A stretch of 64,000 nucleotides of DNA from Streptomyces iakyrus. Lineage in GTDB: Bacteria > Actinomycetota > Actinomycetes > Streptomycetales > Streptomycetaceae. Positions 34,777 through 60,395 of the stretch are shown piece by piece. The notes under the pieces were generated by a model. That model was given only the letters and a program-made list of their open reading frames with translations, was not told where the DNA came from and ran no database searches. Both the position numbers and the translations under genes were made by a program. Within the stretch, counting starts at the first letter, position 1. Each line of letters starts with the position of its first letter. The stretch covers positions 372,001 through 436,000 of the forward strand of contig NZ_JNXI01000004.1 in the NCBI RefSeq assembly GCF_000717055.1, given 5' to 3'.

Positions 34777-35460
34777 TCACGGCGCATTGAGCCGCCGCAG
34801 ATGCGGGGGAAGCGGTACATCCGGTGGCAGCGCCGGGTCCGGCTGGGGAGTGCCGCGCACGTTGATCAGAGGGACGACTCCCGCCCACAGACCGAGATCG
34901 GCGTCGGGGCCGTCGCCGTCGTCCGGAGGCCCCGTGCGCACCTTGACCGACGCCTCGTCGAGCGGCAGTGCGAGCAGGGTGGTCGCGGCCATTTCCTTCC
35001 GGGTGGGCCGGCGGACGTAGTCCCACTGCCCGCGCATCGCCTGCTCCGTCAGCACCCGCAGCCCCAGCAGCTTCCCGTCATCCTCGACGACCAGCCGGGG
35101 GACCCCGTAGATCATGGCACTGCGGTAGTTGACCGAATGCTCGAAGGCGGACCGGGCCAGGACGATTCCGTCGACGTGCGTGACGGTGAGGCACACGACA
35201 TCTTCCGACGCCGCCACCAGGCTGCGGCTGGCTACCGAACCGTGGAAGTACACCGTGTCGTCAGTGGCGCCGTACACGGTGGGCACCACCATGGGTGTGC
35301 CGTCGACGACGACACCGAGGTGGCACACGAACCCGTCGGCGAGCATCGCATGGAGCTCGGCCCTTGCCGTTCTGCCTTTGTCCTTACCACGACGGAGCCG
35401 CGTACGCTCGGTGACCAGCAGCTCGGCGTCATTGGTTTCACGGTCGGAGCCAGCACTCAC
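34777..35460 (-). CDS. Pyridoxamine 5'-phosphate oxidase-family (FMN split-barrel) protein
   Basis: This is a 227-residue protein of the nitroimidazole-resistance/PNPOx-like split-barrel family. The core runs from ARAELHAMLADGFVCHLGVVVDGTPMVVPTVYG through VYFHGSVASRSL, VCLTVTHVDGIVLARSAFEHSVNYRSAMIYG and KEMAATTLLALPLDEASVKVR, a pattern usually associated with FMN or F420. I chose GTG 35460, which has GGAGG upstream and overlaps the preceding stop by 4 bases. As the last gene of the cupin/MetRS-like/oxidase operon, it may be a redox partner or act on a late hydrazine or azo intermediate. That role is inference. Confidence 0.82.
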   Translation of the reverse strand: MSAGSDRETNDAELLVTERTRLRRGKDKGRTARAELHAMLADGFVCHLGVVVDGTPMVVPTVYGATDDTVYFHGSVASRSLVAASEDVVCLTVTHVDGIVLARSAFEHSVNYRSAMIYGVPRLVVEDDGKLLGLRVLTEQAMRGQWDYVRRPTRKEMAATTLLALPLDEASVKVRTGPPDDGDGPDADLGLWAGVVPLINVRGTPQPDPALPPDVPLPPHLRRLNAP

Positions 35461-37424
35461 CGGCGTGCCTCCAGCAGATGGTTTACCGCCGCGGCTGCCT
35501 CGGCAGCGGCGCCGGGTGCGGTCTTGAACCCGGATCCCGACCAACAAGCAGCGACGACAGTCCGGGGCTCGCCTGGAAGAAGCCCGATGAACGGGCCGTC
35601 CGGGTGATAGAGGTCGGTGCCGAATCGGCCTCCCATGACAGGTGCGTGGGCAAGCCACGGCCAGCGGTGGGCGGCGCCTTCGCGGATGTAGGCGATCTGC
35701 TCCTCGGCGAGTGCGTCGCCGCCGGTGGGGCTTACGTCCCATTCCTCGACCGGTCGCCCTGTGAGGTGGCCACCGGCCGCCTCACCGTCCACTTGAGGCC
35801 TGCCCCAGACCCCGGTCGTCAGGTCGTTCACAGCCGGCAGCTCCCTGTCACCCCGGTCGAAGAAGGCGTATCGGATGTGCCGTGTACGGGGAGCCGAGGT
35901 ACCGGGGCGAAACCTCAGACGGTCGCCGAGCAGGGCCGCGCTTCCGGTGCCCGCGGCGACGACCACGCAGCCGGCGGTGAGGGTGGCTCCGTCCATGACG
36001 ACGCCGGCCCCGCGCCGATGGGGGAGCAGTGCGTGTACGGGACCGTACGGCAGTGACGTGGCTCCGGACCGTAGGGCCCTGGTGCGGAACGCCGCCGCCG
36101 TGGCCTGTGGACTCGCGTAGCCACCGTCCGGTTCCCACAGCGCCGCGACGATGTCCTCGACGGCCAGGTCCGGCCAGCGGGATGAGACTTCCTCAGCGGG
36201 CAGCAGGTCCGCCACGATACCTGCGGCCCGTAGCTGCGTGAGCCCGCGCTCGGCCTCGGGCAGATCGTCCGGGCCCAGCAGCACGAGCGAACCGGTGCGA
36301 CGGAAGCCGCAGGAGGCGGCCAGTTCGGGGTCGGCACCCCACAGGAGCTGGTGGCTGCGGATGGCCAGGGACCGGAGCACTGGCTGAGGCTCGTATGCGC
36401 GCACCAGCCCCCCTGACTGAGCGGTGGCCGCGGGAGCGTCCGGCCCGAGGGAGGCCAGTGCTACCGATCGGCCGGACGCAGCGAGTTCGGCGGCGATGGC
36501 GCAGCCGACAACGCCGTCTCCGACGACGATCACATCCGCGCCCGGAACCCTCCCCCTCGCCGGGGGCGGGGTGTGTGAGGACATCTTCGTCAAGGGCACG
36601 ACCTCCCATGCGGACGGGGCGCCGGCGTCGACCGCGTCCCCCCGGGCGTCGAAGCCGATCCCGGCGTGTTTCCTGAGGGCGGTGAGCAGTTCGTCGCCCC
36701 TGGAGCCCGGGTTCGCGGTGAGGGCATCGACGAGGCAGTCGAACGCCGCCTCCACATGGCGGCGGGCACCTCCCCGCAGCCGTACCACGTGGGCCTCGCC
36801 CGCGCCAGCGCCGAGCAGGTCAGGGAAGTCGTGAACGGCGCAGTCGTCGGTGAACAGGAACCGGCCACCGAACCCCTCCGCCCGGAGTCGGCGAGCCGTG
36901 GCGGCGGCTCCGGCGTGGGTACCGCACACGATCACGGCGTCCAGCGGGCCTCCGGGGCCGGAGCAGGGCAGCAGATCTCTGAATCGATCCGCGAGCCGGC
37001 GTCCGTAGGTGCTGCCGTCATCAGCGATGTGAGGTGCTCGGTGACCGAGACGCCGGGCCGCTTGGACCAGCGCCTCCACTTGGCCGGTGTCGTGGGCGCA
37101 CCACCGCAGCGCCCCGGGCTCGGTGAGCAGGCCTGGAGCGGTGGCCAGCGGCAGCAGGAGCGGTAGGCCGGCGGCACGGTAGCGGTCCACCACCCGTGCT
37201 GCGCCCATGCTGTTGAAGTGTCCGACGACTGCGGTGAAGCCACCGTCGGCCACGATCGCGTCGCCCACCTTCGCCGCGGTGCCGGCATCACCCCGGTCAT
37301 CGTGTGGCTCCCAGGAGATTCCGGAATCGAGGCGTGACGTCATGGCGTCCGTCAGCAGTCGCCCCCAGGAAGCGCGGGGCCCGCTGAACGGGCCGACCAC
37401 GGCCACGCGTGTCGGCTCACCCAT
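35457..37424 (-). CDS. Fusion of periplasmic-binding-fold domain and FAD-dependent oxidase
   Basis: This 655-aa protein has two parts. Residues ~1-280 look like a type-1 periplasmic-binding (LivJ/amide-sensor) fold: TRVAVVGPFSGPRASWGRLL, GFTAVVGHFNSMGAARV, DAVIVCGTHAGAAATARRL, GFGGRFLFTDDC. There is no signal peptide. Residues ~297-655 are a DAO-type FAD oxidase: VIVVGDGVVG with Gly302/304/307, SGGLVRAYEP, LWEPDGGYASPQAT and SGSGFKTAPG. The oxidase half is a paralogue of the protein at 41589. I chose ATG 37424, which overlaps the upstream stop (ATGGGTGA), over a further upstream start. In hydrazine pathways FAD oxidases cleave or oxidise the N-N intermediate; the binding-fold half may sense or hold an amino-acid-like ligand. 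Confidence 0.82.
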   Translation of the reverse strand: MGEPTRVAVVGPFSGPRASWGRLLTDAMTSRLDSGISWEPHDDRGDAGTAAKVGDAIVADGGFTAVVGHFNSMGAARVVDRYRAAGLPLLLPLATAPGLLTEPGALRWCAHDTGQVEALVQAARRLGHRAPHIADDGSTYGRRLADRFRDLLPCSGPGGPLDAVIVCGTHAGAAATARRLRAEGFGGRFLFTDDCAVHDFPDLLGAGAGEAHVVRLRGGARRHVEAAFDCLVDALTANPGSRGDELLTALRKHAGIGFDARGDAVDAGAPSAWEVVPLTKMSSHTPPPARGRVPGADVIVVGDGVVGCAIAAELAASGRSVALASLGPDAPAATAQSGGLVRAYEPQPVLRSLAIRSHQLLWGADPELAASCGFRRTGSLVLLGPDDLPEAERGLTQLRAAGIVADLLPAEEVSSRWPDLAVEDIVAALWEPDGGYASPQATAAAFRTRALRSGATSLPYGPVHALLPHRRGAGVVMDGATLTAGCVVVAAGTGSAALLGDRLRFRPGTSAPRTRHIRYAFFDRGDRELPAVNDLTTGVWGRPQVDGEAAGGHLTGRPVEEWDVSPTGGDALAEEQIAYIREGAAHRWPWLAHAPVMGGRFGTDLYHPDGPFIGLLPGEPRTVVAACWSGSGFKTAPGAAAEAAAAVNHLLEARR

Positions 37425-39021
37425 GGAGCGCACCGGTGAAGACCGGGGCCGTCGGCGCGGTGATGGAAGCACCGGGCTCGGGGAGGCAGAGGGCACTGGC
37501 GTCCACGGGGCGGTGGGCAGGGAAGCCCACCGCGGCCGCGAGCCGTGCCGCCCCCCGCGGCATCACTGGCGCCGACCAGGCCGTGAGGGCCGCAGCGACT
37601 CCCAACTGGCCGCGCAGCGCGGCCCGGTAGGAGGAGTCGCCCGCGGGCCGGTCACGCTCGTGGGCGTGCACGTGGCCGAAATCGGAAGCGCAGGCGACGG
37701 CCTCGTCGAGGAGGGCCACTGCCCGACGAGGGTCGAATCCGCTCACACTGTATGCCTCACGCAGTTCGCCGGCGATTCTCCCGAGTCGCTGGGTGAGCCG
37801 CTCCCAGGACTGGCCGGTGGGCTCCTCTCGAGGAACACGGCCCGCACAGTCCTCCTCGACAGCGGTGAACAAATGCGCCAGCCAGTCGTCCCACAAGGAG
37901 GCGAGGTGGTTCCGGGTGCGCTCCAACGCCGGGAGGCTGAAGCTGGTCTCGCGGCCGTTCGGCCGGTCGGCGAGCACATGGTGGCGCAGTACGTCGGAGC
38001 CGACCAGCGCGAGTGCCTCGTGCGCCCAGACGGCATGCCTCCGGCTCGTGGAGAACTTCAACCCCTCGAGCTGATAGAACTCGTTGACGATGAAGGCGCG
38101 GGGCAGCGGGGTTCGGGCGTCGTAGGCGAGGAACAGGGCCGGGAAGAGCACCGCGTGGAAGTAGCCGTTGTCGAAACCGAAGAATTGCACCGGACCGGAC
38201 TGAGGCAGCGTTTCTCCCGCAGGGTCGTACTCCCTCAAGTAGCCGGGAGCCATCTCGAACCAGACGAAGACCCGCTGGTCCGTGAAGCCGGCGACGGGTA
38301 CCGGGATTCCCCAGCCGGCGGGGTGGCTGACGGCGATCTCGGGCAGTCCGTCCGTCAGCATGCGTTCACACAGCGCCCGCAGGTGGGGCGGCATGTCGAC
38401 ACGCTGCCAGAAGGCTGCCAGCTGGTCGGCGAAGGGCGCCAGAGGGAAGTACAGCCGGGTGACGTCGCGCAGCTCGGCCTTTTCACGGCAGGTGGCGCAG
38501 TGCGGGTCGGTGAGGTCACTGCAGTCGTTGGGGCGACCGCACGGCTCGCAGGAGTTGCCGCTGGAAGAAGCTCCGCAGTGCGGGCAACCGCCGGTGACGT
38601 GCCCCTCGTACAGCCAACGGGCACAGGGCGTGCAGTAGGGCAAGGGACGGGTGCGCTCTACGATGTGCCCCTCGTCGTACAGACGCTGGAAGAAGTCCTG
38701 GACGAACAGCGTGTATCCCGGATCGGCGCGCGGACGCAGGACATCGTCGAACTCGACGGCCGCGTCCCGCCAGACCCGTACGATCGATTCACCGTAGCGA
38801 TCGGCTGTCTCTTCCGGCTTCCGGTCACCGCCCTTCAAAGCGCGCACCTCGACGTAGCCCTGGTGGTCGTCGAGCCCGGTGGTCAGGCGGACGTCGTGGC
38901 TGTCGGCGCGCAGGAAGCGGCCGAGTACGTCAGCCGCGACATAGGGGCCGGCCAGGTGACCGACATGAAGGTCGCCATTGGGAGTCGGTGGTGTGGCGGT
39001 GATCCAGGTGCGGGTGGTCAT
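37417..39021 (-). CDS. Methionyl-tRNA synthetase-like protein, probable hydrazine-synthetase ligase subunit
   Basis: This is a 534-aa class I synthetase-like protein. The HIGH motif is HVGH at residues 19-22. The connective region has four Cys-x2-Cys knuckles (CTPC, CPHC, CEPC, CATC). The KMSKS loop reads KFSTS (in GLKFSTSRR). A short helical C-terminal domain follows. A second MetRS inside an operon with a cupin, an N-hydroxylase and FAD oxidases is the hallmark of hydrazine synthetases. There this domain activates an amino acid and esterifies it onto an N-hydroxyamine. ATG 39021 overlaps the cupin stop (ATGA) and follows GGGAGG. Confidence 0.84.
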   Translation of the reverse strand: MTTRTWITATPPTPNGDLHVGHLAGPYVAADVLGRFLRADSHDVRLTTGLDDHQGYVEVRALKGGDRKPEETADRYGESIVRVWRDAAVEFDDVLRPRADPGYTLFVQDFFQRLYDEGHIVERTRPLPYCTPCARWLYEGHVTGGCPHCGASSSGNSCEPCGRPNDCSDLTDPHCATCREKAELRDVTRLYFPLAPFADQLAAFWQRVDMPPHLRALCERMLTDGLPEIAVSHPAGWGIPVPVAGFTDQRVFVWFEMAPGYLREYDPAGETLPQSGPVQFFGFDNGYFHAVLFPALFLAYDARTPLPRAFIVNEFYQLEGLKFSTSRRHAVWAHEALALVGSDVLRHHVLADRPNGRETSFSLPALERTRNHLASLWDDWLAHLFTAVEEDCAGRVPREEPTGQSWERLTQRLGRIAGELREAYSVSGFDPRRAVALLDEAVACASDFGHVHAHERDRPAGDSSYRAALRGQLGVAAALTAWSAPVMPRGAARLAAAVGFPAHRPVDASALCLPEPGASITAPTAPVFTGALHG

Positions 39022-39395
39022 GCGGTGGCCTCCCTCTCGGGCTCGTGCAGGGGCCAGTACACGGAGAGCCACGACAGCGGCGCGTCGGTGGGGTTGCTGA
39101 CGACATGCTCGTTGTTGCGGGGCAGTACCAGCAGGTCACCGGTGGTGAAGTCAGCGGTCTCACCGGCGAGCTGAAGCGTGCCGGACCCAGAGAGGATCAC
39201 CATGACCTCGTCCTGGTCGTGGCAGTCGGGCTCGGAGCTGGAGCCGGCGGCCAGGAAGCAGGCCATCGCGCCGACGGGCGGCTCACCGTCGGCTTGGGTG
39301 GGCTGCCAGGGAATCAGCCGTTGACAAGCCATGCCGAATTCGTCGGAGGCGCTCGTCGCGGAGATATGAATTTTGGTGATCAAGGTGCCTCTCAA
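39018..39395 (-). CDS. Free-standing cupin, probable hydrazine-synthetase rearrangement subunit
   Basis: This is a 125-aa single-domain cupin. Motif 1 reads CHDQDEVMVILSGSG, giving likely metal ligands His59, Gln61 and Glu63. Motif 2, GDLLVLPRNNEHVVSN, gives His97. In known hydrazine synthetases a Zn-cupin domain, fused to the MetRS-like domain, converts the aminoacyl-hydroxylamine ester into the N-N bonded product. Here it is a separate gene whose stop overlaps the start of the MetRS-like gene. The start is uncertain: TTG 39395 gives the full frame, and TTG 39383 follows GAGAGGCACC. It is the first gene of the leftward operon. Confidence 0.8.
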   Translation of the reverse strand: MRGTLITKIHISATSASDEFGMACQRLIPWQPTQADGEPPVGAMACFLAAGSSSEPDCHDQDEVMVILSGSGTLQLAGETADFTTGDLLVLPRNNEHVVSNPTDAPLSWLSVYWPLHEPEREATA

Positions 39396-40237
39396 CCGTT
39401 GCAGAAACGCCCCGGCAGCGCGGAACGTGTCAGCGTTGGGGGCTTACTTCGGGAGCAAGAAATGAGATGAATCACCCTCTGCACTGCACCGCAGTGGGTC
39501 CTCGGCCGCGTATGCATTGGGAAGGCCCGTGGTGTGCCCTGGAAGGCAACGCCAGGCACCGGAGATTCTCCGCCCCCAGGCACCGAGTCGGCGACAATTT
39601 AACACATGTGTTTGCGCGGTCAATCGCCTTCGCCGACAGCGTTCCGCAAGTTTGAGTTGCGCCGCGACGAACCAGTGGTGGCCGGCTGCCCCCCCGGTCA
39701 GGGGTGCGAGCCCTTGCTCGCCGGAATCTCACCCCTCCCGCGCCGGTGGTCTTGCACAAGCGCCCGGACACCGGCACGCGAACCGGACTTACCCCTGGTA
39801 GCGCCCGGGGTGGTGGTGCCGGTACGCAGGCCCTTCAGGTACGTGGGGTGACCATCGACACACCCTGCGTTGTCTCGATCTCGACGCGATTTTCGTCCGG
39901 TTTGGTGGATATTGATGGGCTCATCGTGATCGCTCATGGCCTGATACCGTCTTGATCCACTTCCCGAATCCTGTGCATGATTGGCCACGCCACACGTCAC
40001 AACGGGGGGACATGTAGTGCGTTCGCTATTGCCTTGCGATGTTGTTTTCCGGCGCGGTTGTCTTCACCGCGGCAGCGTCGCTAGTTGATCCGTAATTTCG
40101 CCCAGCATCCGATGCCCTGTCGTTGACCGCCTCATGGCTTCCGGTCGGGCTGCACACCGGCCGTTGCACAGAACCGGCCGCATCGGCTGCGAAGTTACTT
40201 CTCCACTTACGGACACGACTTTTTGCAGAGGATGAGA
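39396..40237. promoter_or_regulatory. 842-bp divergent control region of the N-N cluster
   Basis: No genuine gene is visible here. The region separates the leftward cupin operon from the rightward N-hydroxylase operon and must hold both promoters. A perfect 12-bp palindrome AACACATGTGTT (39601-39612) is the best operator candidate. No copy of the iron box is present, unlike at the siderophore genes. Open frames of 60-100 codons here have poor codon patterns and no ribosome sites. Confidence 0.6.
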
Positions 40238-41596
40238 ATGTCCGAAACAGAACCACTCGCGGAGCGCGAACCTGTCTATGACGTGGTCGGCATCGGCTTC
40301 GGCCCGTCGAATCTCGCGCTGGCCATCGCGCTGGAGGAGCACAACGAGACGTCGGAGCGCGAGCGGGCGGTCACCGGGGTCTTCTTGGAGCGCAAGCCGA
40401 GCTTCGGCTGGCACCGCGGCATGCTGATCGACGGTGCCACGATGCAGGTCTCGTTCCTGAAGGACCTGGCCACGTTGCGCAACCCTGTCAGCCGGTTCGG
40501 CTTCGTGTCATACCTGCATGACAAGGGCCGGCTCGTCGACTTCATCAACCAGAAGACGTTCTTCCCGACACGGGAAGAGTTTCACGACTACCTCGAGTGG
40601 GCCGCCGACGGTGTCGACCACATGGTGCGTTACGACAGCGAGGTGGTATCCGTCCGCACCGTCGCGGAGGGCGGCACGGACGGTGGGGCCGGCCTGTTCG
40701 AGGTGGTCTCCCGGTGTCCCAGGCTCGGCGAGGAGACGGTCCACCGAGCCCGGAACATCGTGGTGGCCTGCGGCCTGCAGCCCGTCCTGCCCGACGGAGT
40801 CACCGCCTCCGAGAGAATCTGGCACAGCGGTGAACTTCTGACCGCCCTGCTCGAGCTCAAGCACGACGTCCCCGAACGCTTCGTCGTGGTCGGGGCGGGC
40901 CAGAGCGCCGCGGAGGTCACCGAGTACCTGCATCGCACCTACCCCTCCGCCGAAGTGTGCGCGGTGCTCTCTCGGTTCGGCTACAGCCCGGCGGACGACA
41001 GCCCGTACGCCAACCGCGTCTTCGACCCGGAAGCGGTCGGGCTCTGGTTCGACGCCCCCGAGCCGGTCAGAGACCAGCTCATGGCTTATCACCGCAACAC
41101 CAACTACTCCGTTGCCGACCTCGACCTCATCGAGGACCTCTACCGCAGGGAGTACCGGGAGAAGGTCCGTGGCGAGCATCGGCTGCGTGTGCTGCGCGCC
41201 TCCCGGGTCACCGACGTGCACGAGGACGACTCAGGGGTCACGGTGCGCGTCAAGGACCTGCCGACCGCGACCCACGCGGAACTCCGGGCCGACGCCGTGG
41301 TGTTCGCCACCGGATACCAGCCCTCCGACCTCACCGCACTGCTCGGCGAGGTCGGTCGGCACTGCCTGCGTGACGCGAACGGGCGGCTGAGCGTCGCACG
41401 TGACTACCGACTGCGCACCAGCCCTGCAATCCGCGCCGGGATCTACCTCCAGGGCGGAACCGAGCACACGCACGGCATCACTTCATCCCTGCTGTCCATG
41501 GTCGCGGTCCGGGCCGGTGAGATCCTCACCTCCATCCAGGAGGACCGCGAAGCCCGGGCATCCGTGCCGACCGCCCTCAGCGGAACCCATGAGTGA
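40238..41596 (+). CDS. L-lysine/L-ornithine N-monooxygenase of the N-N cluster
   Basis: This is a 452-aa FAD/NADPH N-hydroxylase, clearly homologous to CchB along its length. It has FAD motif VVGIGFGPSNLALA, conserved block FGWHRGMLIDGATMQVSFLKD, NADPH motif VVGAGQSAAE, ATGYQPSDLT, and the C-terminal TEHTHGITSS. I chose ATG 40238 after CAGAGGATGAGA. Whether the substrate is lysine or ornithine cannot be read from the sequence. In hydrazine pathways N6-hydroxylysine is usual; the similarity to CchB leaves ornithine possible. It heads the rightward operon and overlaps the next gene by 8 bases. Confidence 0.9.
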   Translation: MSETEPLAEREPVYDVVGIGFGPSNLALAIALEEHNETSERERAVTGVFLERKPSFGWHRGMLIDGATMQVSFLKDLATLRNPVSRFGFVSYLHDKGRLVDFINQKTFFPTREEFHDYLEWAADGVDHMVRYDSEVVSVRTVAEGGTDGGAGLFEVVSRCPRLGEETVHRARNIVVACGLQPVLPDGVTASERIWHSGELLTALLELKHDVPERFVVVGAGQSAAEVTEYLHRTYPSAEVCAVLSRFGYSPADDSPYANRVFDPEAVGLWFDAPEPVRDQLMAYHRNTNYSVADLDLIEDLYRREYREKVRGEHRLRVLRASRVTDVHEDDSGVTVRVKDLPTATHAELRADAVVFATGYQPSDLTALLGEVGRHCLRDANGRLSVARDYRLRTSPAIRAGIYLQGGTEHTHGITSSLLSMVAVRAGEILTSIQEDREARASVPTALSGTHE

Positions 41597-42668
41597 GCTG
41601 CCCCCCGCCGACGTGGTCGTGGTCGGCGCCGGCATCATCGGGGCGGCCGTATTTCACGCACTGGCCGACGGCGGCGTCAAGGTCACCGCCGTCGACGCCC
41701 ATCGGGGCGGTGGTGGCACCACCGCGCGATGCGGAGGCGTCGTCCGCGTCCACCACGACGATCCCGCGCTGCGTGACCGCGCACTCGTCGGCTGGAGGTA
41801 CTTCCACGCGTTCGCCGAGCACACGGGCGTCGATGTGCCATTCCAGGCGTGCGGCTTCCTCTACTTGCCGGCTCTCGACAGAGGGCAGTACGCGGAAACG
41901 GAGTGCGCCCGAATCGCTGCCACCGGGTACCCCATCGAGTGGCTGTCAGGTGCGGAGCTGGCCCGGCGGTTCGGTGACATCGTCAAGGGCCAGGCATGTG
42001 GCGCTGTCTGGGAGCCGCAAGCCGGCTACATCGACGCGGAGGAAACCACGCGAGGCTTCCTGACGGCCGGACAGCGTAAGGGCGGCCGGCTCGTCGAGGG
42101 CGTCGCGGTCCGCGGCCTGAGCCGGCAAGCCGGCAGGATCGTGGGGGTCGACACCGACAGCGGCATGGTCCGCGCTCGCACCGTCGTCCTCGCCACCGGT
42201 GCCTGGACGCCTGCGCTGCTCACCTCCTGGGGCGTGCCGCACGACCTGTGGGCGCAGGCGATCCAGGTGGACCTGCGACTCCCCGCGGCCCCGGTGACCG
42301 AACATCCCGCTTACACGGATGACGTGTACGACCTCAACGGCCGACCCCACCCGGAGTCCACCGGTGTCTACGTGGGTCACCCCACGGGCCGCCGCTGCGC
42401 CGGAGACGCACCCCAGCCCCTCGACCCGGCGCATTCACACCGGATCAAGGCAGCGGCGGCACAGCGGCTGCGCTGGGCCGACAACAGCCGAAGCTGCGGC
42501 GGCCTGCGTGCCGCCGAGTGCTACGCCCCCGACGCCCGGGCACGGGTCGGCCCCATGGCCGGCGACCCGGCACTTGTGCTCGCCACCGGGTTCAGCGGAG
42601 GCGGTTTCAAGATGGCCCCCTGGGCCGCCGCCGAAGTGGCCCGCCTCGTCACCGGAGCGGCACCGTGA
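41589..42668 (+). CDS. FAD-dependent amino acid oxidase (DAO family)
   Basis: This is a 359-aa glycine/D-amino-acid-oxidase-type flavoprotein. The FAD motif VVVVGAGIIGAAVFHAL is at the N-terminus, followed by ARCGGVVRVHHDD, AVWEPQAGYIDAEET, VLATGAWTP and the C-terminal FSGGGFKMAPWAAAEV. It is a paralogue of the oxidase half of the fusion at 35457. In s56-p1- and triacsin-type pathways one such oxidase releases a hydrazino acid from the lysine backbone. The presence of two here may mean two oxidation steps. ATG 41589 overlaps the N-hydroxylase stop. Confidence 0.88.
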   Translation: MSELPPADVVVVGAGIIGAAVFHALADGGVKVTAVDAHRGGGGTTARCGGVVRVHHDDPALRDRALVGWRYFHAFAEHTGVDVPFQACGFLYLPALDRGQYAETECARIAATGYPIEWLSGAELARRFGDIVKGQACGAVWEPQAGYIDAEETTRGFLTAGQRKGGRLVEGVAVRGLSRQAGRIVGVDTDSGMVRARTVVLATGAWTPALLTSWGVPHDLWAQAIQVDLRLPAAPVTEHPAYTDDVYDLNGRPHPESTGVYVGHPTGRRCAGDAPQPLDPAHSHRIKAAAAQRLRWADNSRSCGGLRAAECYAPDARARVGPMAGDPALVLATGFSGGGFKMAPWAAAEVARLVTGAAP

Positions 42669-42700
42669 CCTCCATCCCCACGCGATCACAGGAACATGCG

Positions 42701-43636
42701 ATGACCCACCGAACCAGCGACACAGGCGACATCACCGGCGTCCTGCCCGTGATCCTCATGCCCTACACGGAACAAGGCACCATCGACGAAGAGGACTTCC
42801 TCGCACAGACGGAGCACATGTTCGACGTCGGGTGCGACGGGTTCGTTGTCGGACAGGTCTCCGAGGTGCTGCGCCTGACCCATGCCGAACGGCTGCGTGT
42901 CGCAGAGCTCTGTGCCAAGGCTGCCACCGGCCGCGGCGTCTCCGTGATGAGCACGGGCGCCGAGACGGCCGAGGCCGCGATCGGGTACTCGCGCCATGCA
43001 CAGAGCGCTGGTGTCGACGCACTGCTCGTGATGCATCCCGCCACCGTCGGACTCGGCGACGAGGAGATGGTGGATTACTACCGGCGGATCATCACCTCCG
43101 TAGACATTCCCGTCATCGTTCACCACGCCAAGAGCCTGGCCAAGGTACCGCTGTCCGTCGCCGCTCAGGCCCGGCTGCTCGAGGAGTTCGGCGAGGACCG
43201 GGTGCTGTTCAAGCCCGAGGCCCAACCCACCCCGCCTCGGGTCAGCCAGCTGCGCGACGCCACCGGTGGACGGGCCCGGATCTTCGAGGGCGACGGCGGG
43301 ATGATGCTGCTCGACTGTCATCGCAGGGGCCTGGTCGGCACGATCCCCGCCACCGAGATCGCCGAGATCGTCGTAGTGCTGTGGCGCTTGCTCGAGGAGG
43401 GCCGTCGAGCCGAGGCCGAACGCATCGGACACCCCCTCTCCTACCTCATGTGCCACATGATGAACAGCACCGACTACTACCTCTCCATAGCCAAACGCTT
43501 CTTGAAGGAGCGCGGGATCGTCAAGAACACGATCATCCGAGGCCCGAGCCGCCATGTGCTCGACGAGGAGACCTGGACAGAGGTCCGGCACACGTACGAG
43601 AACCTTCTCCACCTCACCAAGGAGCTCTCACGATGA
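42701..43636 (+). CDS. Dihydrodipicolinate synthase/N-acetylneuraminate lyase family enzyme
   Basis: This is a 311-aa class I aldolase-type TIM barrel. It shows GVLPVILMPYTEQGTIDEEDF at the start, a Tyr in DYYRRIITS and the Schiff-base Lys in DRVLFKPEAQ. The pyruvate-binding GxxE-type motif of DHDPS is changed to GQVSEVLRLT, so the keto-acid partner may not be pyruvate with aspartate semialdehyde. I chose ATG 42701 (AGGAAC upstream). GTG 42665, overlapping the previous stop, is an alternative. It probably makes or breaks a C-C bond in the non-hydrazine part of the product. Confidence 0.82.
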   Translation: MTHRTSDTGDITGVLPVILMPYTEQGTIDEEDFLAQTEHMFDVGCDGFVVGQVSEVLRLTHAERLRVAELCAKAATGRGVSVMSTGAETAEAAIGYSRHAQSAGVDALLVMHPATVGLGDEEMVDYYRRIITSVDIPVIVHHAKSLAKVPLSVAAQARLLEEFGEDRVLFKPEAQPTPPRVSQLRDATGGRARIFEGDGGMMLLDCHRRGLVGTIPATEIAEIVVVLWRLLEEGRRAEAERIGHPLSYLMCHMMNSTDYYLSIAKRFLKERGIVKNTIIRGPSRHVLDEETWTEVRHTYENLLHLTKELSR

Positions 43637-44019
43637 AAAACCACGCCTTCACCATCCGGCTCAAGGACGAGGCGGCTGCCGAGAAGTACATCGCCCTGCA
43701 CCGCGAGGTCTGGCCTGAGATCGTGGGGCCTGGGGGCGCCCTCGAGACCATCGGAGTGCGCAAGCTGCAGATCTTCTACATCGACCCGCTGACGCTGTTC
43801 ATGTACGTCGAGGCCGAGGACCACTTCGAGCCTGTGCGGGACTTCCTGCGCGCCAACGACCTCCACCCCAAGGTCCAGGAATGGGACGACATGATGCACA
43901 CCGACGGCGGTCTGCTCGTGCGCCACCCGGGCAACGACGGGAAGCTCAACTGGGCGCCCATGCGGCGCATCCACCACGTGGACTTCACCAATACGCTGCC
44001 CGACCTGGAGGAGGCGTGA
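43633..44019 (+). CDS. L-rhamnose mutarotase-like (DUF718) protein
   Basis: This is a 128-aa dimeric alpha/beta-barrel-type protein. The family pattern KNHAFTIRLKDEAAAEKYIALHREVWPEIV and the following short strands with ALETIGVRKLQIFYIDPLTLFMYVEAE match RhaM/DUF718 proteins, which contain a conserved His in the LHREVWPE helix. RhaM catalyses sugar anomer exchange; here there is no rhamnose pathway, so it may bind an aldose-like or keto-acid intermediate. ATG 43633 overlaps the previous stop, and its own stop overlaps the next start. Confidence 0.8.
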   Translation: MKNHAFTIRLKDEAAAEKYIALHREVWPEIVGPGGALETIGVRKLQIFYIDPLTLFMYVEAEDHFEPVRDFLRANDLHPKVQEWDDMMHTDGGLLVRHPGNDGKLNWAPMRRIHHVDFTNTLPDLEEA

Positions 44020-46490: not shown

Positions 46491-46519
46491 CCACCCTCTT
46501 ACGCCCTTTGGACACCATT

Positions 46520-47254: not shown

Positions 47255-47257
47255 CCA

Positions 47258-48193: not shown

Positions 48194-48207
48194 CAGAAGG
48201 AACAACC

Positions 48208-49464
48208 GTGTCACCGTCCGACCAGCCGACCGTCGCCATCGTCGACGCCTACTCATCGGCGAACCGCCTCGCCCCGCTCCTTCGGGAGCGCGGCTACCGG
48301 ACCGTTCACATCCAGAGCACCGAGCGCATCCCCGCGGTCTCGGCACCCCAGTTCGTGCCGGATGACTTCGCGGTGAACATCGTCCACCGCGGCGACCTGG
48401 CTGTTACGGCCCGTGTCCTCGCCGACGAGCATCGACCTCTGGCAGTCCTGCCCGGCGGAGAGGTGGGGGTGGAACTCGCCGATGCCCTCGGCGAAGCCCT
48501 CGGCCTGCGGACCAATGGCACCGCGCTCAGCCGGGACCGCCGCGACAAGTTCCGCATGATCGAGACGGTCAAGGCCGCCGGACTGCGCGGCACCGAGCAG
48601 TTCGTAGCCACCGACGAGGACCAGGCCGTCGAGTGGTTCGACAAGACGGGCGGGCGGATCGTCGTCAAGCCGGTGCGCAGCTCCGGAAGTGACGGCGTGC
48701 GGTTCTGTGACACCGCCCAGGAGGTGAGATCGGCATTCCGCGGCGTCCTCGGCAAGGGCAACGCCGTGGCATCGCGGAACGAGGCGGTGCTCTTGCAGGA
48801 GTACCTCTTCGGAGCCGAGTACTACGTCAACACCGTCAGCCTGGACGGGCAGCACCATGTGTGTGACATCTGGCAGACCACGCACATCTCGGCCAACGGT
48901 GTGCGGGACCTCCTCGACAGTGCCCACCTGCTGTCCCGTCGCGGCCGCGTGCAGGACGCACTGGTTGCCTACACCTTCGCCGCGCTGGACGCCCTGGGGG
49001 TGGCGAACGGGCCTGCGCACACAGAGCTGAAGATGACGCCCGACGGCCCGGCTTTGATCGAAACCGGTGCCCGGTTGTGCGGCGGCGGCCTCCCGGTGCT
49101 GGTGCGCACCGCGCTCGGAGAGGGCCAACTCGAATGGACCGCCGACGCCTACCTCGCGCCTGACAGATTCCTCGCCCGGTGCGGCGAGGATTACCGGATA
49201 GAGCGGCATGTTGCCTCCGTCGGCCTGATCTCCCCGCGGTCCGGCACGCTCGTGGACTATCCGCGGCTGGCGGAAGTGCGGGCGCTGGAAAGCTTCCACC
49301 AGCTCAAAGTGGGCGTGGCGCCTGGCGATCCAATCCACCGGACCGTCGACGACTTCAAGATCCCGCTCCTCGTCGAGCTCGCTCACGAGGTGGAAGCGGT
49401 CGTTCACCGCGACCGTGGCACCATCCGTCAGCTCGACGGTGAGGGCTTCTACACCATCGCCTGA
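48208..49464 (+). CDS. ATP-grasp amino acid ligase 1
   Basis: This is a 418-aa ATP-dependent carboxylate-amine ligase of the BacD/DdaF class. It has an N-terminal Rossmann-like domain (~1-110), ATP-binding Lys in GGRIVVKPVRSSGSDGV, adenine-pocket residues in AVLLQEYLFGAEYYVNTV, and metal-binding Glu in HTELKMTPDGPALIETGARLCGG. It forms an amide via an acyl phosphate. GTG 48208 follows AGAAGGAACAACC. It is one of three intact ligases here, so the product is probably a di- to tetrapeptide made without an NRPS. Confidence 0.9.
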   Translation: MSPSDQPTVAIVDAYSSANRLAPLLRERGYRTVHIQSTERIPAVSAPQFVPDDFAVNIVHRGDLAVTARVLADEHRPLAVLPGGEVGVELADALGEALGLRTNGTALSRDRRDKFRMIETVKAAGLRGTEQFVATDEDQAVEWFDKTGGRIVVKPVRSSGSDGVRFCDTAQEVRSAFRGVLGKGNAVASRNEAVLLQEYLFGAEYYVNTVSLDGQHHVCDIWQTTHISANGVRDLLDSAHLLSRRGRVQDALVAYTFAALDALGVANGPAHTELKMTPDGPALIETGARLCGGGLPVLVRTALGEGQLEWTADAYLAPDRFLARCGEDYRIERHVASVGLISPRSGTLVDYPRLAEVRALESFHQLKVGVAPGDPIHRTVDDFKIPLLVELAHEVEAVVHRDRGTIRQLDGEGFYTIA

Positions 49465-49525
49465 TCGAGCACCACCTGAACCCCCGGGCCCTCGCGGCAC
49501 AACCACGAAACACGGAATCCGGACG

Positions 49526-50839
49526 ATGGACTCATTTCACGAACGGGCGAGCGGCGGCGTGCTCGTAGTCGTCGGCAGCGGCATACGGCTCTACCGCGAG
49601 TACTTGCTCGCCGGCGCCGCCCGAGAACACCCACTGTGGCTCTTCGACACCGACGAACCGACGTGGCAGTCGCCCTACCTGGCGGGCTTCACCCGCGTGG
49701 ACACTTCTGATCCCGAGGCACTGGTCGCATCTGCCCGGGAACTGTCGGCGGTCCGCCGCATCGACGGCGTCTTCTGCTTCTCCGAGGCGCTCGTCGAGCC
49801 CGCCGCGGCCCTGGTGGAGGAGTTCGGGCTTCCGGGCATGGGCTCCGAGGCGGTGCGCAACTGCCGAGACAAGAGCCGCACCCGCACGCTGCTGGCCTCC
49901 TCCGACGTCGGCCAGCCGCGGTCAGTGGCGGTCTCCTCGTACGACGAGGCCGCGCGCGCGGCGGACGAGTTCGGCTTCCCCTTGGTCCTCAAGCCCCGTG
50001 GCCTGGCGGGGAGCCTCGGCGTGGTCCTGGTGTCCAAGCCTGCCGGGCTGGTCGACGCCTACCGGGAGGCCGCGGCCCCGAACTACCCAGGCGTACCGAC
50101 CTTCGAGGCGTCCGTCCTTGTCGAGGAGTATGCCGACGGTCCCGAGATCAGCGTGGACGGATTGCTGGTAGACGGGGTCTACCGGCCTCTTGTCCTCGCC
50201 CGCAAGAGGGTCGCGATGGAGCCCTACTTCGAGGAGACAGGGCATCTCGTTGATCCCTGGGACCCGCTCCTGTCCTCCGGTGAGCTGCTCACGCTGCTCA
50301 CCGACGCACACCTGGCGCTTGGTGCCACGGGCACCATCACCCACACCGAGGTGCGGCTGACTGCTTCCGGGCCCCGGCTGATCGAGGTCAACGCCCGGCT
50401 GGGCGGCGGGCTCATCCCCTTCCTCGGCAGCCTCGCGACGGGCATCGACCCAGGGCGCTGCGGCGCCCGCGCAGCGCTGGGCAGACCGGTGGAACTGCCC
50501 GTCGCCGAAAGCCGGCAGGTCGCAGGCATCCACTTCGCCTACCCGCCGGAAGACTGCACGGTGGAGTCGGTGCGGGTGCCGGACCGGGACGCACTGCCGG
50601 GACTGCACCAGGCGATATCCCTGGTCACGCCCGGTGACGTCCTCAGGCTCCCGCCCCGCGGCTACATTTCCCGCTACGCCTACGCCATATGCGTCGCTGA
50701 CACCGTCGCGGCCTGTCAGGAGAGGCTGAAGCTCGCCGGCGCCGCCCTCCGTCTCGAACACCGTCCGGCACCCGCCCTCACGACGGATGCGGAGCCGGAA
50801 CTGGCCTGGGCGCCGGTTTCCCCGGGAGCGGCGCGATGA
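49526..50839 (+). CDS. ATP-grasp amino acid ligase 2
   Basis: This is a 437-aa ATP-grasp ligase. Its N-terminal domain starts VLVVVGSGIRLYREYLLAG. The ATP-binding loop is in FPLVLKPRGLAGSLGVVLV, followed by ASVLVEEYADGPEISVDG and the metal-binding acidic residues in ITHTEVRLTASGPRLIEVNARLGGG. The EVNARxGG form is canonical. I chose ATG 49526. The upstream gap of about 60 bases is the largest in this part of the operon. Its stop overlaps the MFS gene start by 4 bases, pairing it with export. Confidence 0.9.
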   Translation: MDSFHERASGGVLVVVGSGIRLYREYLLAGAAREHPLWLFDTDEPTWQSPYLAGFTRVDTSDPEALVASARELSAVRRIDGVFCFSEALVEPAAALVEEFGLPGMGSEAVRNCRDKSRTRTLLASSDVGQPRSVAVSSYDEAARAADEFGFPLVLKPRGLAGSLGVVLVSKPAGLVDAYREAAAPNYPGVPTFEASVLVEEYADGPEISVDGLLVDGVYRPLVLARKRVAMEPYFEETGHLVDPWDPLLSSGELLTLLTDAHLALGATGTITHTEVRLTASGPRLIEVNARLGGGLIPFLGSLATGIDPGRCGARAALGRPVELPVAESRQVAGIHFAYPPEDCTVESVRVPDRDALPGLHQAISLVTPGDVLRLPPRGYISRYAYAICVADTVAACQERLKLAGAALRLEHRPAPALTTDAEPELAWAPVSPGAAR

Positions 50840-52125: not shown

Positions 52126-52136
52126 GAGATTCCACA

Positions 52137-53399
52137 GTGAGCTTCGACGACCGCCCCGTGATCATCGTGGGATACACGGCGGGCTGGAGAAACGTAGCCG
52201 AGACACATCATCCGCAGGCCACGACCGTTTTCGTCGACACACCGGCCGCCGTGCGTGAGAAGAACCTGAGGGCCGCGCTGTCCGCCGCCGACGCGCCCTG
52301 CGAACTGGTGGTGATGGAGTACGAGGAGGAGGACGCCGCCTCCCGGTTCCACCGGGAGTACAGGAACCGGCCACCGGCAGCCGTCATTCCCGGAATCGAG
52401 TACGCCGTGCCCTTCGCCGCTCGACTTGCCCACCTGTTCGATCTGCCTGGGGCCGGGCCACAGGCCGCGGACCGGCTGCGTGACAAGTGGCTGCTGCGCC
52501 GGGCAACGGCGGGTAGCGACGTGCGCAACCCCGTCTCCCGTGAAGTGTCGAAACCAGGGGACGTACGTGCCCTGATGGCCGAGGTCGGCGGTCCTGTGGT
52601 CCTCAAACCGGCCAACCGACAGGGGGCCATCGGCACGAGGATCGTCCGCAGGCCCGACGACGTGGACGACGCCTGGGCCGAGTGCGTCGTCAACGAGTAC
52701 GCGGCCATGACCGCACAGAGTGTCACACCCGTCCGCATGCTCGCTGAAAGTCACCTCCACGGACCGGAGTTCAGCGTGGAGGCACTCGTGCGTGACGGAC
52801 ATACGCTCTTTCGCAACGTGACCGCCAAGTCGCTCTTTCCGGGGGACCGTCCGGTGGAGCTGGGCCACACCGTACCTGCGAACATCACCGCCGCGATGCA
52901 AGCACGTCTGTGCGCGGCGACTGAACTGGTGCTCAAACAGGTGTGCTTCCAGACCGGCTTCGTGCACTGCGAGTGGATCGTGGTGGAGGGAGAGCCACAC
53001 CTGGTCGAGTGCGCCGGCCGCATGCCCGGCGGGAACATCGTCAAACTGATCGAGCTGGCCTGGAAGGTCGACATCACCCGCGAGTACCTGGCGGTGATGC
53101 GCGGAGCAGCGCCGTCCGCAGCTTTGCCGGAACACCCGGCGGATGGTGCCGCGAGCTGGTTCCTCTCCGCGCAGCCGGGTGAGGTCGTTCAGGTCGACGG
53201 CCTGCCGAAGGCCGTGGACAGTCCAGGAGTCGTCTCAGTCGATCTCATGGTCGATGTCGGATCCCGCGTCCGGGCACCGCGCTCCGGCCGGGACCGGGTC
53301 GGCTGCGTCGTCGCCGCCGACCGCACAGGGGCCGGCGCACGGGAGCGGGCGCGGGATGCCGCGGCACTGATCGACATCCGTGTGCGCCCGGTCCTCTGA
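52137..53399 (+). CDS. ATP-grasp amino acid ligase 3
   Basis: This is a 420-aa ATP-grasp ligase, the third intact one. Its N-terminal domain (VIIVGYTAGWRNVAETHHP) is unlike those of the other two. ATP-binding Lys is in GPVVLKPANRQGAIGTRIV, followed by AESHLHGPEFSVEALV and the metal site in HCEWIVVEGEPHLVECAGRMPGGNI. In the last, ECAGR replaces EINxR, so the second metal ligand Asn is changed to Ala-Gly. GTG 52137 follows TAGGAGATTCCACA. Substrate specificity cannot be predicted. Confidence 0.88.
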   Translation: MSFDDRPVIIVGYTAGWRNVAETHHPQATTVFVDTPAAVREKNLRAALSAADAPCELVVMEYEEEDAASRFHREYRNRPPAAVIPGIEYAVPFAARLAHLFDLPGAGPQAADRLRDKWLLRRATAGSDVRNPVSREVSKPGDVRALMAEVGGPVVLKPANRQGAIGTRIVRRPDDVDDAWAECVVNEYAAMTAQSVTPVRMLAESHLHGPEFSVEALVRDGHTLFRNVTAKSLFPGDRPVELGHTVPANITAAMQARLCAATELVLKQVCFQTGFVHCEWIVVEGEPHLVECAGRMPGGNIVKLIELAWKVDITREYLAVMRGAAPSAALPEHPADGAASWFLSAQPGEVVQVDGLPKAVDSPGVVSVDLMVDVGSRVRAPRSGRDRVGCVVAADRTGAGARERARDAAALIDIRVRPVL

Positions 53400-53431
53400 C
53401 GCATTCACACCGATGGAAGGAATACAAGGAC

Positions 53432-54247
53432 ATGCCCACTCTCCGTGCCGCCACCCCTCGCAGGCTGCTGATGTGCCCACCCCGCCACTTCGACGTCAGG
53501 TACTCCATCAACCCGTGGATGGAGCCGGAGAAGCCGACCGACACCGCTCTCGCCCTCCTGCAGTGGGAACAACTGCGCGGCCTGTTCCAGGAACTGGGAC
53601 ACACCGTGGAGGTCATCGATCCGCTCCCGGGCGTGCCCGACATGGTGTTCGCCGCCAACGGGGCCACCGTTGTGGACGGCAAGGTCCTCGGTGCGCGCTT
53701 CCGCCATGTGCAGCGGACCGCCGAAGGCCCCGCCTACCTCCAGTGGTTCATCCAGCAGGGCTACCGCGAAGTGCTGTGGCCGGAGTACGTCAACGAAGGT
53801 GAGGGGGACTACCTCACGGTCGGCCGGCGCATCCTCGCGGGCACAGGCTTCCGCACGGACCCGCGTTCCCACGCCGAGGCCCAGGAGTTCTTCGGTCTCC
53901 CGGTAACCGGCCTGACACTGGTGAATCCGCGTCACTACCACCTCGACACCGCGTTGGCGGTACTTTCCGATACGGAGATCATGTACTACCCTGCCGCATT
54001 CAGCCCCGGCAGCCAGGCGGTGCTACGGGAGATGTTCCCCGACGCCATCCTCGCCTCGCACGAAGACGCTGCTCTCTTCGGCCTCAATGCTTTCTCGGAC
54101 GGGCTCAACGTCCTGCTTCCCCAAGCCGCGCAGGGGCTGCAGAAGCAGTTGCTGGCCCGCGGGTTCAACCCGATCGGTGTCGACCTCACAGAGCTCCTCA
54201 AGGCGGGCGGCAGCGTGAAGTGCTGCACGCTGGAGCTGCGTGCCTGA
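53432..54247 (+). CDS. DDAH-type amidinohydrolase
   Basis: This is a 271-aa member of the dimethylarginine dimethylaminohydrolase/amidinotransferase superfamily. Catalytic features are an acidic substrate site in PDMVFAANGA, NEGEGDYLTVG, His170 in RHYHLDTAL, and nucleophile Cys264 in GGSVKCCTLEL. The family hydrolyses guanidine groups to ureido groups and amines. ATG 53432 follows GGAAGGAATACAAGGAC. It is the last gene of the rightward operon. It may act on an arginine-derived unit, or supply ornithine or citrulline; which of these is not visible. Confidence 0.85.
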   Translation: MPTLRAATPRRLLMCPPRHFDVRYSINPWMEPEKPTDTALALLQWEQLRGLFQELGHTVEVIDPLPGVPDMVFAANGATVVDGKVLGARFRHVQRTAEGPAYLQWFIQQGYREVLWPEYVNEGEGDYLTVGRRILAGTGFRTDPRSHAEAQEFFGLPVTGLTLVNPRHYHLDTALAVLSDTEIMYYPAAFSPGSQAVLREMFPDAILASHEDAALFGLNAFSDGLNVLLPQAAQGLQKQLLARGFNPIGVDLTELLKAGGSVKCCTLELRA

Positions 54248-56318: not shown

Positions 56319-56512
56319 AAGGCGGTCATCGCGTCCGTCTCCTCTACCGCCGTTGCAACGAGAGGATGCGCTGTAGCCAGCAGGTTCCAACCTGGAGCCG
56401 TTCACGGTGGGTGGTTGCCTTGCACGGCGGATGTGAAGGGCAGCCGAGCGATACCCCGCAGTCGACTCACGGCGAAACCGGGCTGCGGCAGCGGTCAAAC
56501 ACTGCATCCCGC

Positions 56513-56827: not shown

Positions 56828-56891
56828 GTGAGCCCCCTCCAGCCTCGGCCTCGAGCCGGCCGAGCCAGCCGAGCCGACTCCTGCCCGGTAC

Positions 56892-59044: not shown

Positions 59045-59245
59045 ACCGCCAGTATGAGGACCTTGACGGCGTGCCTCGGCCGTGTCCATGACCTCGGGCC
59101 AATGCATTTTCGTTCTGGCCGACATCCTCGCGGGAGCGCCGCGGTAACCGTCTAGCGATCGACACGAGGCTAAGGGGTCCTTTCGGAATGATCTTCCTGG
59201 GGCAGGGTGGAAGTGGAAGTGATTCCGTCCTTGTGGGGGTGGTCC

Positions 59246-59700: not shown

Positions 59701-59748
59701 AGAGTGGTCTCCCACATCTTTGATGGCTCACCAGGTAAGTCAGCATCC

Positions 59749-60362: not shown

Positions 60363-60395
60363 CCCGGGCGGCCGGAACCGAGGAGGAGCGTGTCC

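What the first reader, a model, noticed from the sequence alone, without database searches (positions are those of the whole stretch)
34777..54247. Undescribed N-N bond (hydrazine) biosynthetic cluster with NRPS-free peptide assembly
Seen: two divergent operons together encode a cupin, a MetRS-like protein, an N-hydroxylase, two paralogous FAD oxidases, and then a DHDPS-type lyase, a DRE-TIM aldolase, a RhaM-like protein, HAD, two SDRs, three ATP-grasp ligases, an MFS exporter and a DDAH-type hydrolase. Known: N-hydroxylase + cupin/MetRS-like + FAD oxidase is the hydrazine-forming set of s56-p1 and triacsin biosynthesis, where N6-hydroxylysine is joined to glycine. Inference: this cluster makes a hydrazine, hydrazide or diazo-type building block and ligates it to a separately built unit. 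I know of no characterised cluster with this combination.
Basis: partly seen in the sequence, partly recalled or inferred. Interest (0 to 1): 0.93.

Follow-up and report, generated by a model that had tools for sequence, protein, structure and literature searches.

The report
Orphan hydrazine-peptide gene cluster in Streptomyces
This stretch of a Streptomyces genome carries a conserved, apparently undescribed set of about 18 genes that probably joins two nitrogen atoms starting from a modified amino acid (more likely ornithine than lysine), builds a small reactive unit on them and ligates it into an exported peptide.

Summary
The genes reported are there, and the stated limits (34777-54247) hold: five flanking genes are absent from the core relatives examined. 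The MetRS-like protein is not a housekeeping MetRS: it separates from six of those with full support, sits beside a cupin with the Zn/catalytic residue spacing of RHS1, and a normal MetRS lies elsewhere in the genome. A hydrazine-forming cluster with ATP-grasp peptide assembly is well supported. It is not unique: eight further loci share its DHDPS-RhaM-HMGL-HAD-SDR core, and a compact version occurs in ten more. The product is unknown; an ornithine-derived pyridazine (pyridazomycin-like) is the boldest reading not excluded. New variant of a known kind.

The parts
34777..35460 (-). A: PNPOx/NimA-like FMN split-barrel protein (227 aa)
   Evidence: PF12900 131 bits; in 6 of 9 core loci, 11 of 11 compact rows, 3 of 71 other loci; a PNPOx domain is fused to the B1 domain in P0143 and P0153
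35457..37424 (-). B: type-I periplasmic-binding-like domain (about residues 1-285) fused to a DAO-type FAD oxidase
   Evidence: PF13458 + PF01266; AF2 pLDDT 87.5, Foldseek best matches glycine/sarcosine oxidases for the oxidase part; 96 protein clusters with the first domain in a capped search; two separate ORFs in G113
37417..39021 (-). C: MetRS-like half of a split hydrazine synthetase (534 aa), HVGH and KFSTS motifs kept
   Evidence: PF09334 241 bits; 24% to housekeeping MetRS, separated from six of them with support 1.0; motifs
39018..39383 (-). D: stand-alone cupin half of the hydrazine synthetase; D53-x-H55-x3-E59 ... H93
   Evidence: Cupin_2 54 bits; same residue spacing as RHS1 D63/H65/E69/H103; RHS1 structure 5uqp 27 bits
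39384..40237 (.). divergent promoter region; a LuxR-family regulator gene that stands here in G012 and G387 is absent
   Evidence: flanks align to G012, middle missing, no regulator match in window
40238..41596 (+). E: flavin N-hydroxylase of the KtzI/siderophore clade (probably L-ornithine N5)
   Evidence: PF13434 363 bits; KtzI 417 bits; 59% to NMO2 of the adjacent NRPS cluster
41589..42668 (+). F: second DAO-type FAD oxidase
   Evidence: PF01266 171 bits; in 8 of 9 core loci, 0 of 11 compact rows
42701..43636 (+). G: DHDPS/NAL-family Schiff-base lyase or dehydratase; position of DapA Tyr133 is Ala
   Evidence: PF00701 99 bits; alignment (DapA numbering recalled)
43633..44019 (+). H: RhaM-like mutarotase-fold protein (128 aa), 86-96% identical in the 8 core relatives
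   Evidence: PF05336 60.7 bits
44016..45047 (+). I: HMGL/DRE-TIM metallolyase, LRDG and HAHDN motifs kept
   Evidence: PF00682 84 bits; 3dxi putative aldolase 127 bits
45040..45786 (+). J: HAD-family hydrolase (probable phosphatase)
   Evidence: PF00702 71 bits
45783..46490 (+). K: short-chain dehydrogenase 1
   Evidence: PF00106 114 bits
46508..47254 (+). L: short-chain dehydrogenase 2
   Evidence: PF00106 114 bits
47258..48193 (+). M: degenerate ATP-grasp-fold protein found only in the core loci; invariant C112-W113-x-C115 in 12 aligned sequences
   Evidence: no Pfam match; AF2 pLDDT 91.1; Foldseek L-amino acid ligase 3vot E 2.4e-17; 9 of 9 core and 0 of 83 other loci; 11 proteins found in a capped search
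48208..49464 (+). N: ATP-grasp ligase (PRK07206/DdaF-like)
   Evidence: NF005543 352 bits, cut-off 302
49526..50839 (+). O: ATP-grasp L-amino acid ligase-like
   Evidence: PF13535 56 bits
50836..52125 (+). P: MFS transporter (probable exporter)
   Evidence: PF07690 147 bits
52137..53399 (+). Q: ATP-grasp L-amino acid ligase with LAL_C2 domain
   Evidence: PF13535 57 bits, PF18603 73 bits
53432..54247 (+). R: dimethylargininase/arginine dihydrolase-like hydrolase, cluster-specific clade
   Evidence: NF045659 447 bits; Sll1336 162 bits; 55% to the second genomic copy, 65-89% to 15 copies in other hydrazine-synthetase loci

Best explanation
An orphan biosynthetic cluster that makes and exports a small hydrazine-derived peptide. 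Proposed route: R releases L-ornithine from L-arginine; E hydroxylates its N5; C adenylates an unidentified amino acid X and transfers it to the N-OH as an ester; the Zn-cupin D rearranges the ester to an N-N bond. The sarcosine/glycine-oxidase-like enzymes B and F oxidise one or both C-N bonds beside the hydrazine, with A as a flavin helper and the B1 domain binding an intermediate. A pyruvate-derived carbon chain is built or trimmed by I (aldol), J (dephosphorylation), G (Schiff-base aldol or dehydration), H, K and L, and condensed with the hydrazine. N, O and Q, with pseudo-ligase M, join it to amino acids; P exports the product. Shown here from sequence: gene identities, motifs, family and limits. 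Inferred: every enzymatic step, ornithine rather than lysine, and the order. Unknown: X and the product.
For: Split hydrazine synthetase with the known catalytic motifs and apart from housekeeping MetRS. E in the KtzI/siderophore clade: KtzI 417, 4b63 (SidA) 280, 3s5w (PvdA) 273 bits, against 203 for a lysine 6-monooxygenase (5cqf) and 24 for 4d7e (Lys monooxygenase; the names SidA, PvdA, NbtG are recalled); the azaserine-like control L137 gives KtzI only 139 bits. E is 59% to NMO2 of the window's NRPS cluster, whose one extractable A-domain code reads DMETVLLIN, close to the hydroxyornithine code recalled as DMENLGLIN. R's nearest solved relatives are Sll1336 and Alr4995, recalled as the arginine dihydrolases ArgZ and AgrE, and R occurs in 8 of 9 core loci. 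Fusion link B1 to a PNPOx domain. Ligases N and Q over curated cut-offs. Gene set conserved in 9 loci.
Against: R passes the NCBIfam dimethylargininase cut-off (447 vs 300) and falls below the arginine-dihydrolase one (192 vs 450), so ornithine supply is an inference; the compact clusters have the same N-hydroxylase clade but no R within the 20 kb seen. The nearest N-hydroxylase structure, 9nns, is named 'L-lysine N6-monooxygenase MbtG' (possibly an automatic name; not checked). The azaserine-like control does not score high against any lysine enzyme either (best 187 bits, 6xbb), and that L137 is azaserine-like is my reading of gene order. The N-hydroxylases of G113 and G026 group with NMO2 rather than with E. 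Most hydrazine synthetases in the review passages read use lysine or DABA hydroxylamines. B and F are only 26-37% identical to DAO enzymes of other such loci, so their cleavage site cannot be transferred. N is missing from 3, P and Q from 6 of 9 core loci, O from 5. The in-cluster regulator is absent, so the cluster may be silent.
Confidence: 0.55

Rival explanations
1. One reading: E makes N6-hydroxylysine, C/D join it to glycine, B frees hydrazinoacetic acid (as in s56-p1, triacsin, azaserine), which the ATP-grasp enzymes ligate.
For: Same three functions; HAD/aldolase genes could make a separate partner; the azaserine cluster also has an ATP-grasp and an MFS gene (PMC10445470, passages).
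Against: E about 30% to the azaserine-like N-hydroxylase L137 and in another clade. Pocket motifs VWFEMAPGYL/GFDNGYFH against VWPEMS[YH]GFL/GYDNSFYH in L137-L141. Synthetase split, not fused. No AMP ligase, carrier protein or acetyltransferase domain (the HAA loading genes of azs/tri) among the 18 genes.
Confidence: 0.25
2. The two FAD oxidases act in turn on both sides of the hydrazine and release free hydrazine, which is then ligated (albofungin logic).
For: Two DAO paralogues in 7 of 9 core loci (L009 is cut before B; G255b lacks F). An AsnB homologue, the family of the albofungin hydrazine transferase Afn14 (review PMC11705231, section read), stands in 4 of 9 core loci.
Against: No AsnB in the window cluster; F has no counterpart in the compact clusters.
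Confidence: 0.1
3. The MetRS-like protein is a resistant duplicate MetRS and the neighbouring genes are an unrelated peptide pathway.
For: HIGH and KMSKS-like motifs retained.
Against: 24% to the housekeeping MetRS, which lies on contig C41; altered pocket; cupin gene in 9 of 9 core loci and 11 of 11 compact rows.
Confidence: 0.03
4. R is a resistance or detoxifying enzyme that hydrolyses an amidine or guanidine-like product, not a supplier of ornithine.
For: A second, 55% identical copy lies elsewhere in the genome; R also occurs in 7 loci of a different hydrazine-synthetase lineage that all have ATP-grasp O and mostly MFS P, suggesting a link to the exported product.
Against: Present also in core loci without O, P or Q; the motifs around the catalytic Cys, His and Asn align with Sll1336/Alr4995.
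Confidence: 0.25

Closest known systems
Zn-cupin/MetRS-like hydrazine synthetases (Spb40, Tri28, AzsN, PyrN, RHS1 + partner, Afn8/Afn9, Apy9)
   Same: MetRS-like adenylating protein, Zn cupin with D-H-E-H residues as in RHS1, flavin N-hydroxylase, DAO-type FAD oxidase
   Different: split proteins (as RHS1 and Afn8/9); N-hydroxylase of the KtzI clade; amino-acid pocket unlike azaserine-like loci; oxidase fused to a periplasmic-binding domain
azaserine cluster azs (PMC10445470, passages read)
   Same: hydrazine synthetase, N-hydroxylase, FAD oxidase, one ATP-grasp and one MFS gene
   Different: no NRPS, carrier proteins or succinyl-HAA genes here; has aldolase/SDR/HAD set and three to four ATP-grasp proteins
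pyridazomycin (no gene cluster found in the held papers; precursors believed to be ornithine, oxaloacetate and glycine, PMC7347517, passages read)
   Same: predicted ornithine N-hydroxylation and N-N coupling to an amino acid
   Different: no gene cluster available for comparison; no AsnB for the carboxamide in the window, though four core loci have one
piperazate biosynthesis (KtzI/KtzT)
   Same: ornithine N-hydroxylase clade
   Different: no KtzT-like gene; N-N bond predicted to be made by cupin + MetRS-like
L-amino acid ligases (BacD, 3vot, RizA, DdaF)
   Same: ATP-grasp folds of N, O, Q and M
   Different: M appears to have lost metal-binding residues; substrates unknown

Membership tests
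cupin/MetRS-like hydrazine synthetase cluster | MetRS-like protein distinct from housekeeping MetRS, with adenylation motifs | tested here: met
   HVGH, KFSTS; housekeeping copy on C41; 32 MetRS-like against 6 housekeeping-type, support 1.0
cupin/MetRS-like hydrazine synthetase cluster | cupin with four Zn/catalytic residues | tested here: met
   D53, H55, E59, H93 with RHS1 spacing; residues also seen in 15 relatives printed, seven of them with one extra residue before the last His
cupin/MetRS-like hydrazine synthetase cluster | adjacent N-hydroxylase | tested here: met
cupin/MetRS-like hydrazine synthetase cluster | N-N product formed in vitro or in vivo | not testable with these tools
   needs enzymes and LC-MS
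hydrazinoacetic acid type (s56-p1, triacsin, azaserine) | lysine N-hydroxylase of the Spb38/Tri26/AzsL type | tested here: not met
   E about 30% to azaserine-like L137, separate clade; L137 stands in for AzsL by gene order, AzsL itself was not compared
hydrazinoacetic acid type (s56-p1, triacsin, azaserine) | glycine-specific pocket | tested here: inconclusive
   motifs differ from azaserine-like loci; specificity code not available
piperazate synthase pathway | KtzT-type heme synthase in the cluster | tested here: not met
   none among the 18 genes by Pfam and fold
KinJ/NegJ heme hydrazine formers (negamycin) | KinJ-type heme protein | tested here: not met
   every gene has another family or fold; M is ATP-grasp fold; no KinJ sequence was compared directly
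housekeeping methionyl-tRNA synthetase | main MetRS of the genome, canonical methionine pocket | tested here: not met
pyridazomycin-type pathway | ornithine N5-hydroxylation | tested here: inconclusive
   clade and score evidence only
pyridazomycin-type pathway | homology to the producer's cluster | not testable with these tools
   no cluster in the listing of the four held papers that name it
ATP-grasp L-amino acid ligases | family model above cut-off | tested here: met
   Q LAL_C2 73 vs 29.4 bits; N NF005543 352 vs 302; O ATP-grasp_4 56 vs 27 but LAL_C2 28 vs 29.4

The most novel reading that the evidence does not exclude
The family makes N5-aminated ornithine by a cupin/MetRS hydrazine synthetase and closes it with a 1,4-dicarbonyl made by the HMGL, HAD and DHDPS-type enzymes into a pyridazine or pyridazinium amino acid, which each subfamily decorates differently (ATP-grasp peptide here, AsnB amide in four relatives). 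It would supply the missing genetics of pyridazomycin-type compounds, believed from earlier work to come from ornithine, oxaloacetate and glycine.
Probability: 0.12. Interest if true: 0.85.

Novelty: new variant of a known kind. Interest (0 to 1): 0.6.

Why it matters
It defines an unassigned branch of hydrazine biosynthesis with a testable switch from lysine to ornithine as the N-hydroxy substrate, an oxidase fused to a periplasmic-binding domain, and modular ATP-grasp assembly and export. Compact and full versions in related strains let the minimal set be separated from the decoration. N-N compounds of this origin (azaserine, triacsins, pyrazomycin) are known bioactive metabolites.

Tried and rejected
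Housekeeping or resistant MetRS: rejected. My first tree for this was rooted on a single housekeeping sequence, which made its 0.89 support empty; one search repeats it with six (from own, G012, G207, G113, G111, G255). Negamycin and fosfazinomycin/kinamycin routes: set aside, they use KinJ-type heme proteins (PMC12154649, passages read) and no gene here fits. Lysine route of azaserine type: weakened. DDAH as an unrelated neighbour: rejected, it is in 8 of 9 core loci and in its own clade. Window flanks as part of the cluster: rejected. Identity of the coupled amino acid from the pocket: not possible, because the published eight-residue code is not in the held text. Named producers: no link found; pyridazomycin is named in four held papers; I read passages of one (PMC7347517) and saw only listings of the other three. 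Plasmid searches gave one useful relative, L136. The papers on ArgZ and AgrE are not held. PMC13061610 and PMC11429834 (passages) describe other N-N clusters and gave no match. My notebook gives 87 loci for the matrix; the recount is 92. In it L011 and L162 are the same DNA, and G255 has two loci. Loci are 13-41 kb, so absence can be an edge effect (L009 ends inside MetRS). The loci were found through MetRS or HMGL matches, so tallies are conditional on these genes; protein searches scored capped candidate lists.


Full report
Observation. The 18 genes listed under parts were placed by ORF, codon-position and family scans.

Hydrazine synthetase. C has 241.7 bits to the MetRS catalytic model, while a second gene on contig C41 with 509 bits is the housekeeping enzyme. 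C is 24% identical to that enzyme and 33-52% to 17 other MetRS-like proteins from N-N-type or related loci. A tree with six housekeeping-type MetRS (23-24% to C) separates them from all 32 MetRS-like proteins with support 1.0. HVGH and KFSTS are kept. The cupin residues D53, H55, E59, H93 have the 2-4-34 spacing of RHS1 D63, H65, E69, H103, each of which was needed for activity (PMC8664883, sections 10, 12 and 24 read, plus abstract and passages). The standalone arrangement is known from RHS1 and albofungin (PMC8664883; PMC11705231, section 15 part 1 and passages; albofungin also in PMC9469721, passages).

Family. In a 392-genome sample of the genus, 102 carry a MetRS-like match at E <= 1e-60. 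I compared 92 loci with the cluster proteins. DHDPS, RhaM, HAD, SDR1 and M occur in 9 of 92: the window, G012 (17 of 18 genes in the 40 kb examined, A missing), G387 (18 of 18), G255 (two loci), G357, G113, L009 (Streptomyces sp. ISL-87) and L136 (Streptomyces sp. NBC_01483 linear plasmid). A compact version, HMGL-cupin-MetRS-B-permease-N-hydroxylase-PNPOx, occurs in 11 rows (10 distinct loci; S. litmocidini, S. tanashiensis, S. wedmorensis, S. nymphaeiformis among them). The periplasmic-binding domain of B is in 8 of 9 core loci (L009 is cut before it), in G026 and in 11 of 11 compact rows, and in 0 of the other 71. A capped protein search found 96 clusters with this domain. Two of them join it to a PNPOx domain instead of the oxidase (P0143, P0153), which suggests that A and B work together. 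In G113 the binding protein and oxidase are two ORFs.

Ornithine rather than lysine. E scores 557 bits to 9nns (named a lysine N6-monooxygenase), 417 to KtzI (ornithine), 280 to 4b63 and 273 to 3s5w (both ornithine), 203 to the lysine 6-monooxygenase 5cqf and 24 to 4d7e, a lysine monooxygenase. An N-hydroxylase from a locus that I read as azaserine-like (L137) scores only 139 to KtzI; its best match is 187 (6xbb), so it is no close match to any solved lysine enzyme either. In a tree of 80 N-hydroxylases E lies with NMO2 of the neighbouring NRPS siderophore-type cluster (59% identity), far from the azaserine-like set (30%); the G113 and G026 enzymes fall next to NMO2; branch supports were not read out. 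The one A-domain code I could extract there, DMETVLLIN, resembles the hydroxyornithine code as I recall it. R scores best against Sll1336 and Alr4995, recalled as the arginine dihydrolases ArgZ and AgrE. The 15 copies of R in other hydrazine-synthetase-type loci are 65-89% identical to the window copy, while the second genomic copy is 55%. But R also exceeds the dimethylargininase cut-off and not the dihydrolase one. The review reports that Apy9 accepts N5-hydroxyornithine and that Por11 joins N4-hydroxy-DABA or N5-hydroxyornithine with glycine, so ornithine would be a rare but not unheard-of partner.

Carbon unit. I keeps its metal motifs and is nearest to 3dxi, a 'putative aldolase'. G keeps a lysine in the expected strand (my reading; the printed alignment is shifted by one there) but has Ala where DapA has Tyr133 and GQVSE where DapA has GTTGE (DapA numbering recalled), so it is not a normal DHDPS. 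Its best solved matches are nevertheless DHDPS enzymes (71 bits); one full-length match further down is L-2-keto-3-deoxyarabonate dehydratase (47.6 bits). H and G are among the most conserved proteins in the 8 core relatives (86-96% and 77-89%). From this I infer, without test, aldol building with pyruvate, dephosphorylation by J and a Schiff-base step by G, possibly to a 1,4-dicarbonyl that a hydrazine would close to a pyridazine ring.

Assembly. N and Q exceed curated ligase cut-offs and O the ATP-grasp one. M has no Pfam hit, an ATP-grasp fold (AF2 pLDDT 91.1; 3vot, E 2.4e-17), lost second metal ligands by inspection and an invariant CWxC in 12 sequences; 11 proteins were found in a capped search, not all of known context. 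It may be a pseudo-ligase or carrier. Core loci vary here: N is in 6 of 9, O in 4 (one at 28%), Q in 3, P in 3, AsnB in 4 of 9.

Regulation. G012 and G387 have a LuxR-family gene between D and E; homologues of 32-34% identity lie near the compact operons in 11 of 11 rows; the window has none, and since G012 is its sister in the MetRS tree loss is likelier than absence from the start.

Novelty. Ten literature searches (nine on N-N products and one on arginine dihydrolase) listed no paper that by title, abstract or the passages read describes a cluster of this content. Many subscription papers are not held. I rate it a new variant of a known kind. Pyridazomycin, believed to come from ornithine, oxaloacetate and glycine through N5-hydroxyornithine (PMC7347517, passages read), is the most attractive known product to test.

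Noticed in passing
L093, L109, L123, L163, L164, L166, L168, L171, L177 (other Streptomyces): MetRS-like paralogues about 46-57% identical to C, beside an SDR2 homologue. In the two aligned (L093, L109) KMSKS and the pocket Trp are lost, and they group with the window family (support 0.89). No cupin or N-hydroxylase match in the seven loci of 15-20 kb. In L123 (G310) the operon is AsnB, PrpF-like, SDR, MetRS-like, near a gene I read as mshA: probably a repurposed or dead adenylating enzyme.
   Followed up: partly
L010-L014, L021, L158-L161, near the HMGL gene: All 10 distinct compact clusters carry a small secreted-type peptide with two or three DTGWG repeats; in L010 and L014 its gene ends 5 bp before or overlaps the HMGL reading frame. 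Possible signalling peptide or precursor.
   Followed up: partly
G111, G020, G207, L208, L213, L214, L217: A different hydrazine-synthetase lineage shares the R-type hydrolase (65-80%) and the ATP-grasp O (44-51%), six of the seven also the MFS P: a ligation/export/hydrolase module moves between lineages; G207 adds FkbH-, ACP- and KASIII-like genes by my reading.
   Followed up: partly
window 1080-21134: NRPS siderophore-type cluster with its own N-hydroxylase (59% to E), transporter-like genes and a 3643-aa NRPS with an A-domain code DMETVLLIN.
   Followed up: partly
window 55267-60409: AbiEii-type nucleotidyltransferase gene, helicase/DUF3427 pieces in two frames (56892-57980, 57665-59044) and an IS transposase-like ORF right of the cluster.
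   Followed up: no
window 39630-40121: Probable loss of a LuxR regulator present in the two nearest relatives.
   Followed up: yes
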